This document shows, piece after piece, positions 10,392 to 22,154 of a DNA stretch of 33,059 nt. The DNA is from Bacteroidales bacterium (lineage in GTDB: Bacteria; Bacteroidota; Bacteroidia; Bacteroidales; UBA12481). The position numbers and the translations under genes are program-made. How positions within the stretch are numbered: the first letter of the stretch is position 1; each line of letters begins with the position of its first letter. The notes beneath the pieces were generated by a model. The model did no database searches. It saw only the letters and a program-made list of their open reading frames with translations, and was not told the DNA's origin. The stretch is taken from NCBI GenBank assembly GCA_023145515.1, contig JAGLDP010000028.1:1-33059 (forward strand). Reading direction: 5' to 3'.

Positions 10392-11525
10392 TTAAAAAAG
10401 CCGGGGAACTGCAGGCTGACTATCATTTAACTTGAATAAAAGTTTTCCTCTTGATTTCTCCAGAACAAATTTCTCTGATCTTTTTAAAATGGCTACTATT
10501 CCCTGTGACTTTACATCTATTTTAAGTGCAATAAGAATATCGGATGAACTCATTCCTTTCCCTGAGTTTTCCTTTATGACTTTCTCTACTTCCTCAACAA
10601 TTTTTTCATCTGATAAAATCCTCCTATAGTCTGAGTTGGAGTCATTCAGAACTGTCACTTCAACACCTGAAAGATCAACCGGTACAGCCCCATTGTGTAT
10701 TAATTGCTGATTACCACTCTCCTCACCATCCTCAGGGATCCTGATATAAATTTTGCGTCCCCGCTTTAAGCCATCCCTCACCCCCTCCCAGGTCCCACCT
10801 TTTGTATCAGACTCTGCTACAAATATCTCACTAGCCAGACCATAAATAGTTTTATTCCTATCCATTGCCAAGCCAACCGACCAGGGGGTTTTGGGATGAT
10901 AAGAACTAAGAACAAGCACATCTCCTTTTACTATGTGTGGATAATACTTTTTGCTTGAATAGGTCATAATTCCCTGGGGCAAAATGATAATACTCTGACC
11001 ATGATGATCGAGAGCCGAGTTCAAGGCCTGTTGATCAACTCCCTTTGCAAAGCCACTAATAATGATCTTCCTCTGATCAGTCATTTGCTTTGCAATAGAA
11101 TTAGTGAATTGAATAGCTTGCGAACTACATGATCGAGATCCAACTATTGCAACACCAGGCTTATTCAATAGTTCCGTATTCCCCTTAACATAAAGCAAAA
11201 TGGGGGCCAATTTCCCCAGGTTATTCTTTAATTCAACCGGATACTCAGAATCAAAAATAGATATCGGGTGAATATTCTGATTAATAACTTCTTCAGCAAG
11301 GAAACTAAAATTTGGGAGATTCTCTATTGATTCACTCAAGCCTCTGATTTCTTTTGGTTCAAATTCAAAGCTAACAAGGCTTTTATCCTTAACATCCTCA
11401 AGAGCTCTTTCCAAAGAAATCCCGGCATTAAAAACCGCTTGAATAAGATACTCCATCTTCCTCCGATTAGAAAACCCGGTAGCATGTGCCAGCGCCATCC
11501 AGAATGAGAGTTCTTCTTGTTTCAT
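10392..11525 (-). CDS. Divergent DprA-like (Smf/LOG-fold) DNA-processing protein
   Basis: This 377-residue protein has the DprA layout: an N-terminal helical region (1-80), a Rossmann-type domain and a C-terminal winged-helix-like region (about 310-368). DprA motifs seen are VGSR at 128-131, SGFAKGVD at 157-164, RNKTIYGLA from 223, and GGTW at 243-246. Canonical DprA binds single-stranded DNA and loads RecA during transformation. This protein differs: the His of the usual GIDxxAH motif is replaced (GVDQQAL) and the SGS(M/L)ITA loop reads GGTWEGV, so it is probably a paralogue rather than the housekeeping DprA. The ATG at 11525 begins 1 nt after the stop of the RecQ-ComF gene and has GGAGGAAG just upstream, indicating translational coupling. 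A TTG 27 nt earlier also opens the frame and is less likely. Confidence 0.82.
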   Translation of the reverse strand: MKQEELSFWMALAHATGFSNRRKMEYLIQAVFNAGISLERALEDVKDKSLVSFEFEPKEIRGLSESIENLPNFSFLAEEVINQNIHPISIFDSEYPVELKNNLGKLAPILLYVKGNTELLNKPGVAIVGSRSCSSQAIQFTNSIAKQMTDQRKIIISGFAKGVDQQALNSALDHHGQSIIILPQGIMTYSSKKYYPHIVKGDVLVLSSYHPKTPWSVGLAMDRNKTIYGLASEIFVAESDTKGGTWEGVRDGLKRGRKIYIRIPEDGEESGNQQLIHNGAVPVDLSGVEVTVLNDSNSDYRRILSDEKIVEEVEKVIKENSGKGMSSSDILIALKIDVKSQGIVAILKRSEKFVLEKSRGKLLFKLNDSQPAVPRLF

Positions 11526-11526
11526 T

Positions 11527-13533
11527 TCATCTTCCTCCAACAGTTTTTGCAATTACCAAAGGAGCAATCTCAACAGCTCCATGTTTTTGCAATACTTTTG
11601 CAATTTCTTTTATCGTATGCCCACTGTCAAAGATATCATCAATTATTAAAATCCTTTTACCATTAATTGAATTTCCTTCAAAAATAAAAGCCCCGCATAC
11701 ATTACTTTTCTTTCCAATAGCAGACTCAAATTCTTTTTGCGGCTTTGTTTCCTTACGTTTCTTCAAATCGTAACTGATTTGGATTCTCAAAACTTTCGAT
11801 ATTTTCTCTGCGAAATTTCTAACCAAATCACCTGACTCTGTTGGAGGCACAAATATGATCAAATCAAATTTCTTTTGTCCATAATATCCCCGAAATGCCT
11901 TTAATGTCAGACGCAAAAGAAAGTCGGGAAAATCTCCACCATTTTCATATTTAGATCGATGGAGTGCATTCCCAACCTCTGTTACGCCATAATATGACGA
12001 TGCTACACCATTTGATAACACAGATTTTTTTGTCTCCAGCTTTAATTTCGGAAAATATGATTCTCTGAATTCCTTAATTTTCTCCAACCATTCTGATGAA
12101 GCCCTGATAGCATATTTTTCACCCCGATCTGAATCGCAACTCCCACAATCATTCTCCTGATCATCCCCTAAATAATTACACAAAAATTTCATACGGCATA
12201 GACTGGAGGTGAGATACTTTTTCAGTTCCTCAAATTCCTTAAGCTTGAACTCTCTCAATTGTTCAAAAGAAGAAGTATCAAGTTCAGGAGCACCAAATCG
12301 CAATTCATATAGCTTGCCCTTGCTTTGCTGAATAGCTGAAACAATCTTCTGATCCACTAAATCGTTCAAAATAACATTAACGGCTGTTTGCTTCATATTT
12401 ACTAGACGAATTATTCCATGCAATTTGAGCGATTCTTCCTTTAGTACATCAATAGTCTTCTGGTATTGCCTTACAGAAGGTCGATTTCCCTCAATAAATG
12501 AGAGTGGCAATTGGTCATCAGCACTATTGTAAAACAGAATTATTTTAGTAGGTTTTCCATCTCGTCCTGCACGTCCAATTTCCTGATAATAATGCAATGG
12601 TGAAGGTGGAATCTGCACGTGGATGATAAATCGGATGTCTGGCTTATCAATTCCCATTCCCAGTGCATTGGTTGCCACAACACATTTATAGGAATTTTTC
12701 ATCAATCCGGTCTCAACTGACCTACGGGTTGCATCATCAAGACCACCATGATAGTTTACAGCATTTATCCCAACAAATTGCAACCATCTGGAGTAGATTT
12801 CGGTTTCAATCTGTGTTCCACAGTAAATAATTCCTGAACCTTCAGTTTTTCTCAGAAAACTCACCACACCAGACATTTTGGCCTCTTGTGAATCAGCCCA
12901 AACAACATTAAGACTAAAATTCTCTCTTAAAAGATTTCCCCGAAGAATAGTCAATTCCCCTCCCAGTTGATTCTCAATATCATTTTGCACACTCATTGTG
13001 GCTGTAGCAGTACAAGCCAAAATAGGAAATTTCCCTGGCAGTAGTTTGATCAGACTCACAATTCTTCTGTATGAAGGTCGGAAATCATGTCCCCATGTAG
13101 AAATACAATGTGCTTCATCAATCACCACCATGCTTATTTTGAATTCTTTGACAGCATCAAGCCAGGATACATCCTCCTGTCGCTCCGGCGCAATATAAAG
13201 GAGTTTATAATATCCGTCTTTAGCCTTTTTAAGCACCTCTGCTTTTTCTTCAAAGCTCTGGGTACTATTTAATACAGTAGCTCGTATACCCAAATCAATC
13301 AATCGATTAACCTGCTCTCTCATTAGGGCAATTAAGGGTGAAAAAACAATGGTAGTACCGTCTAATTGACAAGCAGGAAATTGAAAAACAAGCGATTTAC
13401 CAAACCCAGTTTTCTGTATCATTAAAACTCGTTGTCTGTTCAGCAAGGCTTGAATTCCTTCCCACTGCTCATCATAAAAATGATCAAACCCGAAAGTCGC
13501 CTTGAGGCGTTTCTCTGCTTCAGTTCTATTCAT
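11527..13533 (-). CDS. RecQ-family DNA helicase fused to a C-terminal ComF-like phosphoribosyltransferase
   Basis: Residues 1-340 of this 668-residue protein are a RecQ superfamily-2 helicase: Walker A TGFGKS at 42-47, DEAH at 139-142 with the RecQ loop CISTWGHDFRPSY, TATAT near 175, and motif VI QEIGRAGRDG at 317-326. A RecQ-type zinc segment follows with C446, C452, C463 and C466. The fourth cysteine of the E. coli pattern is absent (CGSCDSD) and C452 may replace it. Residues about 550-668 are a ComF-type PRTase: KxTxxQ-like KETKPQ near 594-599, NVCGAF at 611-616, and the PRPP-binding motif ILIIDDIFDSGHT at 628-640. I found no HRDC domain. It is coupled to the downstream dprA-like gene. ComF and DprA both serve natural transformation, so a role in handling imported or foreign single-stranded DNA is a reasonable inference. 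Confidence 0.88.
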   Translation of the reverse strand: MNRTEAEKRLKATFGFDHFYDEQWEGIQALLNRQRVLMIQKTGFGKSLVFQFPACQLDGTTIVFSPLIALMREQVNRLIDLGIRATVLNSTQSFEEKAEVLKKAKDGYYKLLYIAPERQEDVSWLDAVKEFKISMVVIDEAHCISTWGHDFRPSYRRIVSLIKLLPGKFPILACTATATMSVQNDIENQLGGELTILRGNLLRENFSLNVVWADSQEAKMSGVVSFLRKTEGSGIIYCGTQIETEIYSRWLQFVGINAVNYHGGLDDATRRSVETGLMKNSYKCVVATNALGMGIDKPDIRFIIHVQIPPSPLHYYQEIGRAGRDGKPTKIILFYNSADDQLPLSFIEGNRPSVRQYQKTIDVLKEESLKLHGIIRLVNMKQTAVNVILNDLVDQKIVSAIQQSKGKLYELRFGAPELDTSSFEQLREFKLKEFEELKKYLTSSLCRMKFLCNYLGDDQENDCGSCDSDRGEKYAIRASSEWLEKIKEFRESYFPKLKLETKKSVLSNGVASSYYGVTEVGNALHRSKYENGGDFPDFLLRLTLKAFRGYYGQKKFDLIIFVPPTESGDLVRNFAEKISKVLRIQISYDLKKRKETKPQKEFESAIGKKSNVCGAFIFEGNSINGKRILIIDDIFDSGHTIKEIAKVLQKHGAVEIAPLVIAKTVGGR

Positions 13534-13595: not shown

Positions 13596-13672
13596 CCTGA
13601 GCCTTGAGCCTTGAGCCCTGAGCCCTGAGCCTTGAGCCTTGAGCCCTGAGCCCTGCGCTCTGAATCTTCCGC
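13596..13672. repeat. Heptanucleotide tandem repeat, unit C(C/T)TGAGC, eight copies plus decayed copies
   Basis: Eight consecutive 7-bp units alternate between CCTGAGC and CTTGAGC (13596-13651). They are followed by three decayed units in register (CCTGCGC, TCTGAAT, CTTCCGC) to 13672. It is the longest near-perfect array in the window and lies 63 bp upstream of the RecQ-ComF start codon. Confidence 0.95.
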
Positions 13673-19733: not shown

Positions 19734-19750
19734 TAGCATAGAATTTGATT

Positions 19751-20182
19751 ATGAGCAATACAAGCCAAGTATCAGAACCGATGATAAGCTATAGAACCCT
19801 GGATAATCAGAATGCCTTTCTTCTGATTGAAGCCATTAAAAATGGCATTGATTATAGCTTTTTTGAAAAACTGGCAAAGTCAATCCCCTTTAGTATGCGT
19901 GAATGGTCTTCTTTTTTACATTTATCTGAGCGATCGATGCAACGATATAAGAAGGAAAAACTGAGTTTCGGTCAAGTTAGTTCCGAACGTATTGTTGAAA
20001 TCACTATGCTGTACAAGTATGGAGTAGAAGTATTCGGTAATACAGAATTCTTCAACACCTGGTTACATGACAGAAATTTGGCATTTGGCAAAAAAATCCC
20101 AAAAAACCTACTTGACAGCACTTTTGGCATTAGCCTTGTAAAAGACGAACTAACACGTATTGAACACGGTATTCTGGCATGA
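19751..20182 (+). CDS. Xre/MbcA/ParS-type antitoxin of a RES toxin-antitoxin pair
   Basis: This is a 143-residue protein. Residues about 25-80 form an Xre-like helix-turn-helix region of the kind seen in TIGR02293 antitoxins (FSMREWSSFLHLSERSMQRY). The C-terminal part (VEVFGNTEFFNTWLHDRNLAFGKKIP) is the DUF2384 toxin-binding domain, with the usual G-K-x-P segment. The antitoxin neutralises the RES toxin by binding at its active site and represses its own operon; this is established for the family. Antitoxin first and toxin second, with a 4-nt ATGA overlap at 20179-20182, is the standard order. I used the ATG at 19751 rather than the TTG at 19745. Confidence 0.92.
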   Translation: MSNTSQVSEPMISYRTLDNQNAFLLIEAIKNGIDYSFFEKLAKSIPFSMREWSSFLHLSERSMQRYKKEKLSFGQVSSERIVEITMLYKYGVEVFGNTEFFNTWLHDRNLAFGKKIPKNLLDSTFGISLVKDELTRIEHGILA

Positions 20183-20640
20183 TTGTTTTCAGACTGGCAA
20201 ACAGAAAATTCAGCCATGATCTCTCCGGAAAGGGAGCAGAAATCACAGGAGGGAGGTGGAATAGTAAAGGTGTTGGAGTGGTTTACACCAGTGAATCAAG
20301 AGCCCTTTGTACTGCAGAAATTGCTGTACACACTCAACTTGGAATCATTCCGAAAGATTATGAATTGGTACACATCCTGATTCCTGATTCGATACAGTTT
20401 ATGGAGATAAGTCCGGATGAACTGCCTTTGCCCTGGAATTCAATCCCTTACAATAGCATTACCCAAAACATAGGCAATCATTTTATCGATACAAATGAAT
20501 ACCCTGTACTAAAAGTGCCATCAGCAGTGATTCCTGGCGATTTCAATTATCTGATCAATCCCGCCCATCCGGATTCCAGGGGAATTGAGATAACAAAAAC
20601 TGAGGCTTTCAGCTTTGATGAGAGATTGTTTAAGAGATAA
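20179..20640 (+). CDS. RES-domain toxin (NAD+-degrading type)
   Basis: This 153-residue protein spans the whole RES domain. The three residues that name the family appear to be R26 (GGRWNSKG), E47 (TAEIAVH) and S115 (VPSAVIPGDFNYLINPAHPD), with Y37 also in the expected place. Characterised RES toxins (MbcT and Res of Pseudomonas) break down NAD+ and halt growth. All key residues are present and the length is normal, so the toxin should be active. It overlaps the antitoxin gene by 4 nt. Confidence 0.93.
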   Translation: MIVFRLANRKFSHDLSGKGAEITGGRWNSKGVGVVYTSESRALCTAEIAVHTQLGIIPKDYELVHILIPDSIQFMEISPDELPLPWNSIPYNSITQNIGNHFIDTNEYPVLKVPSAVIPGDFNYLINPAHPDSRGIEITKTEAFSFDERLFKR

Positions 20641-21540: not shown

Positions 21541-21561
21541 TTTCAATTTAGATTATTGAAA
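21541..21561. other. Short inverted repeat at the hicB 3' end
   Basis: TTTCAAT (21541-21547) and ATTGAAA (21555-21561) flank a 7-nt loop and overlap the hicB stop codon. No T-run follows on the minus strand, so it is a weak terminator candidate at best. Confidence 0.3.
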
Positions 21562-21900
21562 TTGATCAGCTGAAAGGAATTCCTTCATTGCTTTTTCAAC
21601 AAGTTGGTTGAGAGAAATACCCATTTCAATAGATTTGCGAGCGGCCTTACGGTGGGTATCAGGTTTAATTCTAATATTAAAACTACCCTTATAGGTTTTT
21701 TCCGTTGCTTTTCCGTTGAATTCACATAACTCTATATAATCTTCTACGGCTTCACCAAATGCATCCTTCAATTCCTGCACATCGCTCCCCTCAAAACTCA
21801 CCAAATCATCAATGCCTTCTAGCTTACCATAAAAGACCTCATCTTCAGCACTAAAGTGAACTGTAGCCAAATAATTCTTATATTTCATTACATTTTTCAT
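21553..21900 (-). CDS. hicB: HicB-family antitoxin
   Basis: This 115-residue protein has an N-terminal HicB degraded-RNase-H-like domain (YKNYLATVHFSAEDEVFYGKLEGI, then a SFEGSDVQELKDAFGEAVEDYI helix) and a C-terminal ribbon-helix-helix-like segment (FNIRIKPDTHRKAARKSIEMGISLNQLVEKA) that should bind operator DNA. It neutralises HicA and represses the operon; both roles are established for the family. Its ATG overlaps the hicA stop by 4 nt (21897-21900), which supports that start over the in-frame ATG 12 nt later. Gene order is toxin first, the common order for hicAB. Confidence 0.93.
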   Translation of the reverse strand: MKNVMKYKNYLATVHFSAEDEVFYGKLEGIDDLVSFEGSDVQELKDAFGEAVEDYIELCEFNGKATEKTYKGSFNIRIKPDTHRKAARKSIEMGISLNQLVEKAMKEFLSADQFQ

Positions 21901-22154
21901 AAAAGATCCTCCTTTTTAAGTTCTGCAATAATCTGATTAATCTGATAATACTTCAAGGTACTTCCAGGTTGTGGTCTGTGCAAACGGATAATGTGCTTTG
22001 TACCTGGATGAAAGAATGACATTCTTGATCCAGAAGTTTTGCCTGATTTAAGCTTAGTATATCCAAAACCTTTCAAAATAGTTCTCAATTCTGAGTATGT
22101 AAAAACTCTTGGTTGAGTCAATAACCTGGCTCGAAGTTTTTCCTTTTTCGTCAT
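21897..22154 (-). CDS. hicA: HicA-family mRNA interferase toxin
   Basis: This 85-residue toxin has a double-stranded-RNA-binding-like fold and cleaves mRNA independently of ribosomes in known members. The family core is visible: TYSELRTILKGFGYTKLKSGKTSGSRMSFF, then HIIRLHRPQPGSTLKYYQINQIIAELKK. In the best-studied HicA proteins the active His lies in a GSH motif. Here the equivalent is GSR, which is common in the HxPHPG sub-branch, where the His of LHRPQPG may substitute. Length is normal for this branch. Its start codon lies inside a 25-bp inverted repeat that is a good operator candidate. Confidence 0.9.
   Translation of the reverse strand: MTKKEKLRARLLTQPRVFTYSELRTILKGFGYTKLKSGKTSGSRMSFFHPGTKHIIRLHRPQPGSTLKYYQINQIIAELKKEDLL

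What the first reader, a model, noticed from the sequence alone, without database searches (positions are those of the whole stretch)
10392..13533. RecQ helicase-ComF phosphoribosyltransferase fusion coupled to a divergent DprA-like protein
Seen: RecQ helicase motifs (DEAH 139-142, QEIGRAGRDG 317-326), a four-Cys segment and a ComF-type PRTase (IDDIFDSGHT) in one 668-residue protein, and a DprA-like gene starting 1 nt after its stop. Known: in transformable bacteria ComFA (a zinc-bearing helicase), ComFC (a PRTase) and DprA handle incoming single-stranded DNA. Inference: this two-gene module rebuilds that set with a RecQ helicase in place of ComFA, and may serve DNA uptake, restart of damaged DNA or defence against foreign DNA. 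The DprA-like protein lacks the usual GIDxxAH His and SGS loop, so it is probably a specialised paralogue. This is the best candidate here for an undescribed system.
Basis: partly seen in the sequence, partly recalled or inferred. Interest (0 to 1): 0.72.

Follow-up and report, generated by a model that had tools for sequence, protein, structure and literature searches.

The report
PsyrTA/RqlHI toxin–antitoxin pair, Bacteroidales variant
The two genes are a Bacteroidales copy of an already described bacterial toxin–antitoxin/phage-defence pair (called PsyrTA or RqlHI): a DNA helicase fused to a nucleotide-making enzyme that is poisonous unless its DprA-like partner holds it in check.

Summary
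In detail: a 668-aa RecQ helicase–ComF-type PRTase fusion (11527-13533, minus) is followed after 1 nt by a 377-aa DprA-like gene (10392-11525, minus). It is not an undescribed system. PADLOC calls the fusion PsyrT (816 bits, whole length) and the partner PsyrA (248 bits). The same architecture and gene order were characterised as RqlH/RqlI in E. coli, where the PRTase domain is genotoxic and the DprA-like protein binds and restrains it (PMC4670107). Catalytic residues are intact here, so I predict an active pair. Competence is unlikely: the same genome has separate comF and dprA genes. In 77 of 80 database loci the fusion gene lies upstream of the dprA-like gene on the same strand. The family is patchy (11 of 118 relatives) and its tree mixes phyla. 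In Algoriphagus, Parafilimonas and a distant E. coli version, the pair sits inside type I restriction operons; in an Acinetobacter plasmid it sits inside BREX. This supports defence, but protection by this pair is untested, and one E. coli PsyrTA gave no detectable protection (PMC12409345). Verdict: new member of a known kind. Side finding: three relatives carry an extra PRTase gene between the two.

The parts
11527..13533 (-). psyrT/rqlH-like toxin gene: RecQ-type 3'-5' helicase (res. ~1-470) fused to ComF-type phosphoribosyltransferase (res. ~490-668), 668 aa
   Evidence: Pfam; PADLOC PsyrT 816 bits, 2-666 on 2-686/689; AlphaFold pLDDT 88, best PDB folds RecQ cores
10392..11525 (-). psyrA/rqlI-like antitoxin gene: DprA-like Rossmann protein with N-terminal helices and C-terminal winged-helix-like domain, 377 aa
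   Evidence: Pfam DNA_processg_A; PADLOC PsyrA 248 bits; AlphaFold pLDDT 89, best PDB folds DprA and ShosA 8zva
11523..11529 (-). TGA-A-ATG junction (stop of toxin gene, 1 nt, start of antitoxin gene), preceded by GGAGG within the end of the toxin gene; suggests translational coupling
   Evidence: sequence; in relatives the commonest arrangement is a 4-nt overlap
11614..11643 (-). PRPP-binding loop IDDIFDSGHT (res. 631-640) of the PRTase; D636 corresponds by motif to RqlH D663, needed for toxicity
   Evidence: D632/D633/D636 conserved in 70-71 of 72 sequences; RqlH D663A loses toxicity (PMC4670107)
13108..13119 (-). DEAH box (res. 139-142) of the helicase
   Evidence: invariant in 72/72
13393..13398 (-). 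Walker A Lys-Ser (K46-S47) of the helicase
   Evidence: invariant in 72/72
11022..11042 (-). GVDQQAL (res. 162-168) of the DprA-like protein, where canonical DprA has GIDxxAH
   Evidence: Leu in 72/72 of this subfamily; Leu or Met, never His, in the wider 24-member alignment

Best explanation
A PsyrTA/RqlHI-type toxin-antitoxin module, most likely serving anti-phage / anti-plasmid defence by abortive infection. The toxin is a RecQ-type helicase that carries a ComF-like PRTase; the antitoxin is a DprA-like protein. At rest the two proteins form a complex and the PRTase is held inactive (shown for E. coli RqlHI, inferred here). The most likely trigger is abnormal or foreign DNA structure, or a phage protein, engaging the helicase and/or the DNA-binding DprA fold (inferred). 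Released PRTase then disturbs PRPP/nucleotide chemistry, giving DNA damage, SOS-type arrest and death before the phage matures (inferred from RqlH genotoxicity and from the related ShosTA).
For: Full-length PADLOC matches, PsyrT 6e-246 and PsyrA 4e-74; an E. coli pair that scores 1019/577 bits on the same models aligns with the window proteins (31.7% over 719 columns, E 5e-107; 32.6% over 190, E 8e-30). Toxin-then-antitoxin on one strand in 77/80 loci, two of three exceptions at contig ends, the order reported for all rqlHI pairs. Residues whose mutation alters RqlH toxicity are conserved. T and A distances track each other, Mantel r 0.83, best of 1000 permutations 0.17. Canonical dprA and a separate comF exist. 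Patchy distribution and cross-phylum mixing on the tree. Embedded in type I R-M operons (L114, L120, L123, L164; E. coli plasmid and chromosome) and in BREX (Acinetobacter). Related ShosTA protects against T7 and lambda; ShosT described as PRTase/pyrophosphatase that disturbs purine pools (review).
Against: No function was measured here. One E. coli PsyrTA gave no detectable phage protection and slowed growth (PMC12409345). The window's nearest neighbours are peptidase and glycoside hydrolase genes, not a defence island. Overall PADLOC enrichment of neighbours in relatives is only modest against random regions. Some genomes carry the fusion without the partner (G018; Gram-positives per PMC4670107), so toxicity is probably not universal. 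Identity to the proteobacterial type is only about 31%.
Confidence: 0.82

Rival explanations
1. A chromosomal DNA-maintenance module: the helicase and the DprA-like recombination mediator jointly process stalled forks or ssDNA, and the apparent toxicity of the lone helicase-PRTase is a by-product of an unbalanced repair complex.
For: Russell & Mulvey themselves propose a beneficial DNA function; RecQ and DprA folds are both repair/recombination folds; in one distant group (L087-L092) the locus mostly sits in a similar neighbourhood beside ATP synthase genes, as for a vertically kept gene.
Against: Very patchy presence (11/118 relatives, 36/395 phylum sample), phylum-crossing tree, position inside R-M and BREX operons and on plasmids fit an accessory conflict module better; deletion of rqlHI in E. 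coli gave no fitness loss in the assays reported.
Confidence: 0.12
2. A competence (DNA-uptake) module that substitutes for ComFA/ComFC/DprA.
For: Domain content resembles ComFA + ComFC + DprA; TIGR00201 comF matches the PRTase (40.6 bits).
Against: The genome has its own ComF (C12, 236 aa with N-terminal Cys pairs) and its own DprA with the GIDxxAH motif (C7); 9 of 11 fusion-bearing relatives have a separate canonical DprA and 9 of 11 a clearly separate ComF; E. coli, which carries the pair, is not ordinarily competent and no transformation was seen; all 24 aligned A proteins lack the canonical DprA His.
Confidence: 0.03
3. A degenerate or silent remnant of a toxin-antitoxin pair.
For: Some relatives have split toxins (L113, L132, L161), orphan toxin (L043) or orphan antitoxin (L117).
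Against: In the window both frames are intact, full length and keep all catalytic residues.
Confidence: 0.03

Closest known systems
PsyrTA (Pseudomonas syringae toxin-antitoxin; Sberro et al. 2013, cited in PMC9122126; PADLOC PsyrT/PsyrA)
   Same: Same domain order in the toxin over its whole length, DprA-like antitoxin, same gene order
   Different: Window proteins belong to a subfamily about 31% identical to the proteobacterial type (816 against ~1019 bits on the PsyrT model)
RqlH/RqlI of extraintestinal E. coli (PMC4670107)
   Same: RecQ-like helicase with C-terminal PRTase upstream of a DprA-homology protein with C-terminal HTH; key residues K49, D148, D663 have counterparts K46, D139, D636
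   Different: RqlI is 400 aa, PsyrA here 377 aa; toxicity not tested for the window pair
ShosTA / DprA-PRTase of P2-like phages (PMC9122126; ShosA structures 8zva, 9vzo)
   Same: PRTase toxin with DprA-like antitoxin; the DprA models match (ShosA 130 bits) and folds match
   Different: PADLOC's ShosT model (237 positions) has no helicase part; it covers only residues 550-664 of the fusion
Dpd system DpdF helicases
   Same: RecQ-like helicase core matches DpdF models (398 bits)
   Different: Match confined mostly to the helicase; no Dpd genes nearby; PsyrT model scores twice as high
Canonical RecQ, ComFC and DprA
   Same: Each domain is homologous
   Different: Below the NCBIfam cut-offs for recQ (384.5 against 640.2), dprA (119 against 191) and comF (40.6 against 233.6)

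Membership tests
PsyrTA / RqlHI | Toxin is a RecQ-type helicase with C-terminal PRTase, matching the family model over its length | tested here: met
   PADLOC PsyrT 816 bits, 2-666 on 2-686 of 689; Pfam domains
PsyrTA / RqlHI | Adjacent DprA-like partner matching PsyrA | tested here: met
   PADLOC PsyrA 248 bits; 1 nt gap
PsyrTA / RqlHI | Order helicase-PRTase then DprA-like, same strand | tested here: met
   77/80 loci
PsyrTA / RqlHI | Intact PRPP loop and helicase motifs | tested here: met
   D632, D633, D636, K46, DEAH present and conserved
PsyrTA / RqlHI | Toxin alone is toxic, partner relieves toxicity, proteins bind | not testable with these tools
   shown for E. coli RqlHI only (PMC4670107)
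ShosTA | Stand-alone PRTase toxin without helicase | tested here: not met
   helicase fused; ShosT model matches residues 550-664 only
Competence genes comFA/comFC/dprA | Be the genome's only ComF and DprA | tested here: not met
   separate ComF (C12) and DprA with GIDxxAH (C7) in the same genome
Competence genes comFA/comFC/dprA | Score above the curated cut-offs for DprA and ComF | tested here: not met
   119 against 191 bits; 40.6 against 233.6 bits; note that the separate ComF also misses the comF cut-off
Canonical RecQ | Pass TIGR01389 recQ equivalog cut-off | tested here: not met
   384.5 against 640.2 bits
Anti-phage defence system | Genomic association with defence genes | tested here: inconclusive
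   clear in several relatives (inside type I R-M, BREX), weak overall, absent in the window apart from two other TA pairs
Anti-phage defence system | Protects against phage | not testable with these tools
   no protection seen for one E. coli PsyrTA (PMC12409345)

The most novel reading that the evidence does not exclude
The Bacteroidota-centred subfamily (about 31% identical to the proteobacterial PsyrTA/RqlHI type) is a functionally distinct immune module: a helicase that surveys DNA and, coupled to a DprA-like ssDNA sensor, fires its PRTase when a partner restriction or BREX system has been breached. The embedding between hsdS and hsdR (seen in two distant subfamilies) and the three-gene form with a second PRTase protein would be parts of that design.
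Probability: 0.12. Interest if true: 0.55.

Novelty: new member of a known kind. Interest (0 to 1): 0.22.

Why it matters
It closes the lead as an already described module, while giving a well-populated Bacteroidota-centred subfamily with intact catalytic residues. PsyrTA/RqlHI has a known toxicity phenotype but, as far as I could find, no settled trigger or chemistry; the insertion of the pair inside type I R-M operons and BREX points to where to look, namely back-up immunity when restriction fails.

Tried and rejected
Competence reading: rejected because separate comF and dprA exist. ShosTA membership: rejected, helicase present. DpdF/Dpd: rejected, lower score and no Dpd neighbours. Missing SGS loop as a marker of the paralogue: rejected, this genome's canonical DprA lacks it too; the missing His is the consistent mark. 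Phage collection search with the DprA-like protein gave only distant DprA-like hits of 24-33% identity. A plasmid search with the window toxin at 1e-90 found nothing; a search with a more RqlH-like relative found the E. coli, Nostoc, Acinetobacter and Sinorhizobium loci. The Sberro 2013 and M. smegmatis RqlH papers are not held, so their content is used only through papers that cite them; the ShosTA mechanism paper (Pu et al. 2025) likewise, through a review. Neighbour enrichment test: 119 neighbours against 127 random genes gave modestly more clear defence families near the pair; the tool lists families rather than genes and cuts the list at 25, so I make no claim of significance. No direct alignment to the F11 RqlH/RqlI sequences was possible; an E. 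coli pair found on a plasmid and in 53 of 5,426 E. coli genomes was used instead. A literature search for PsyrTA embedded in R-M or BREX operons found no paper that says so in the held library, which does not show it is unknown.

Full report
Observation. The fusion runs 13533-11527 on the minus strand (668 aa) and holds DEAD, Helicase_C, RecQ zinc-binding and phosphoribosyltransferase domains. The DprA-like ORF starts at the ATG at 11525, 1 nt after the TGA stop (TGA-A-ATG), with GGAGG just upstream, and ends at 10392. The named motifs are all present. The histidine of GIDxxAH is Leu168 here. The missing SGS loop does not discriminate, because the genome's own canonical DprA also lacks it.

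Identity. Against PADLOC the fusion is PsyrT (816 bits, essentially full length) and the partner is PsyrA (248 bits). Neither protein reaches the curated cut-offs for RecQ, ComF or DprA proper. The published equivalent with experiments is RqlH/RqlI (Russell & Mulvey 2015, PMC4670107): RqlH has a RecQ-like helicase and a C-terminal PRTase, RqlI has a DprA-homology region and an HTH, the two proteins bind, RqlH alone causes SOS induction and filamentation, and the PRTase pocket mutation D663A removes toxicity. The positions K49, D148 and D663 of RqlH correspond by motif to K46, D139 and D636 here. An E. coli pair found on an IncF plasmid, which scores 1019 and 577 bits on the same PADLOC models, aligns to the window proteins at 31.7% over 719 columns and 32.6% over 190 columns. 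AlphaFold models (pLDDT 88 and 89) match RecQ cores and DprA/ShosA structures in the PDB.

Genome context. The window lies on contig C135 of a 2.58-Mb, 63% complete assembly. That assembly has another DprA with the GIDxxAH motif (C7) and another ComF of 236 aa (C12), so the pair is not the ordinary competence set. Order relatives that match named database contigs are Bacteroidales MAGs (G062 contig C307 and JAIOTT010000407.1 have the same length, 20,242 bases), so the host is most likely a member of Bacteroidales (inference). The window's flanking genes are an M28 peptidase, an M14 carboxypeptidase-like protein and a GH127 enzyme, not defence genes.

Distribution. Among 118 other genomes searched as relatives, 11 have a full-length fusion at 54-62% identity; the rest match only through RecQ or not at all. 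Ten of the 11 have the DprA-like gene next door. A phylum sample gives 36 of 395 genomes, counting split or helicase-only matches. Toxin and antitoxin distances correlate (Mantel r 0.83, 72 pairs, best of 1000 permutations 0.17). The toxin tree (quick method) needs 18 changes of phylum label and puts, for example, a Thiomargarita toxin inside a Bacteroidota clade and Desulfobulbus beside Bacteroidales; MAG binning errors could add to this.

Conservation. K46, DEAH and the D632/D633 pair are invariant or nearly so in 72 toxins; D636 in 70. In the antitoxins GSR, SG.A.G.D, RN and GGTW are conserved, and position 168 is Leu in all 72; in the wider alignment it is Leu or Met, never His. The four Cys of the zinc site are kept in the window but the first and third have been lost together in 42 of 72 sequences.

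Defence context elsewhere. In E. coli the pair lies exactly between hsdS and hsdR of a type I restriction operon, on a conjugative plasmid and on the chromosome of strain D6; that DNA is present in 53 of 5,426 complete genomes. In the window-type subfamily, hsdM-hsdS lie upstream and hsdR directly downstream in L114, L120 (Algoriphagus alkaliphilus) and L123 (Parafilimonas terrae), with one to a few small genes between hsdS and the toxin gene, and a type I system surrounds the pair in L164 (Fibrobacter). These Bacteroidota cases group in one clade, so they may be one event there. In an Acinetobacter plasmid the distant type sits between pglX and a DUF262 gene/pglZ of BREX. Other relatives have SoFic, a type I R gene, RhuM/PtuA-like or ZorD/DpdE-like helicase genes near by. 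A bulk test of neighbours against random genes shows only a modest excess.

Mechanism. Shown in E. coli RqlHI: binding, toxicity of the PRTase, restraint by the DprA-like protein. Reported for the helicase-less cousin ShosTA: protection against T7 and lambda (PMC9122126), and ShosT acting as PRTase and pyrophosphatase with ShosA binding DNA (Pu et al. 2025 as summarised in PMC12593503). Inferred for the window: DNA-dependent release of the PRTase from the helicase-antitoxin complex during infection or DNA damage, leading to nucleotide imbalance, DNA damage and arrest. Contrary evidence: an E. coli PsyrTA gave no protection against the phages tested and slowed growth (PMC12409345).

Verdict. 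Ordinary in the sense of already described: a new member of the PsyrTA/RqlHI kind, in a subfamily centred on Bacteroidota with no experimental member that I know of. Interest 0.22. What stays open is the trigger and chemistry of the whole family, and the three-gene variants seen in relatives.

Noticed in passing
L108:4374-6035(+), L116:6397-7995(+), L159:1173-2333(+): In three relatives a third gene (386-553 aa) is inserted between toxin and antitoxin with 1-4 nt overlaps at both ends. The three proteins are homologous (phmmer 3e-43 and 2e-37) and end in a second PRTase domain related to that of PsyrT (PADLOC PsyrT positions 530-687, E 5e-16); the N-terminal part has no family. Only 3 of 395 phylum genomes have a related stretch.
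   Followed up: partly
L087, L089, L090, L091, L092: A distant toxin group is followed by two tandem DprA-like genes (weak PF02481 matches where tested, L092), mostly in a similar neighbourhood with ATP synthase genes, so it looks vertically inherited.
   Followed up: partly
L196:1694-11773(+), L198:1694-11773(+), L114:720-12378(+), L120:1289-12354(+), L123:2-10611(+): The pair is embedded inside type I restriction operons, between hsdS and hsdR, in two toxin subfamilies only about 31% identical, suggesting insertion at the same operon position more than once.
   Followed up: partly
L043:8149-10170(+) (genome G018) and L117:6222-7166(+): Orphan toxin without antitoxin (G018 has only a canonical DprA; a SNF2 helicase gene follows the toxin) and orphan antitoxin without toxin.
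   Followed up: partly
window 12136-12198 (Cys 446/452/463/466): The first and third Cys of the RecQ zinc site are lost together in 42 of 72 sequences, replaced mostly by Ser/Pro and Phe/Tyr; the window keeps all four.
   Followed up: no
window 19745-20640(+): A second toxin-antitoxin pair: Xre/MbcA/ParS antitoxin and RES-domain toxin, overlapping by 4 nt.
   Followed up: no
window 21553-22154(-): A third toxin-antitoxin pair, HicA/HicB-like, so three TA-type loci lie within about 12 kb.
   Followed up: no
window 13596-13663: Tandem repeat of CCTGAGC/TTGAGCC units (28-bp period, 2.1 perfect copies) in the intergenic region just upstream of the toxin gene.
   Followed up: no
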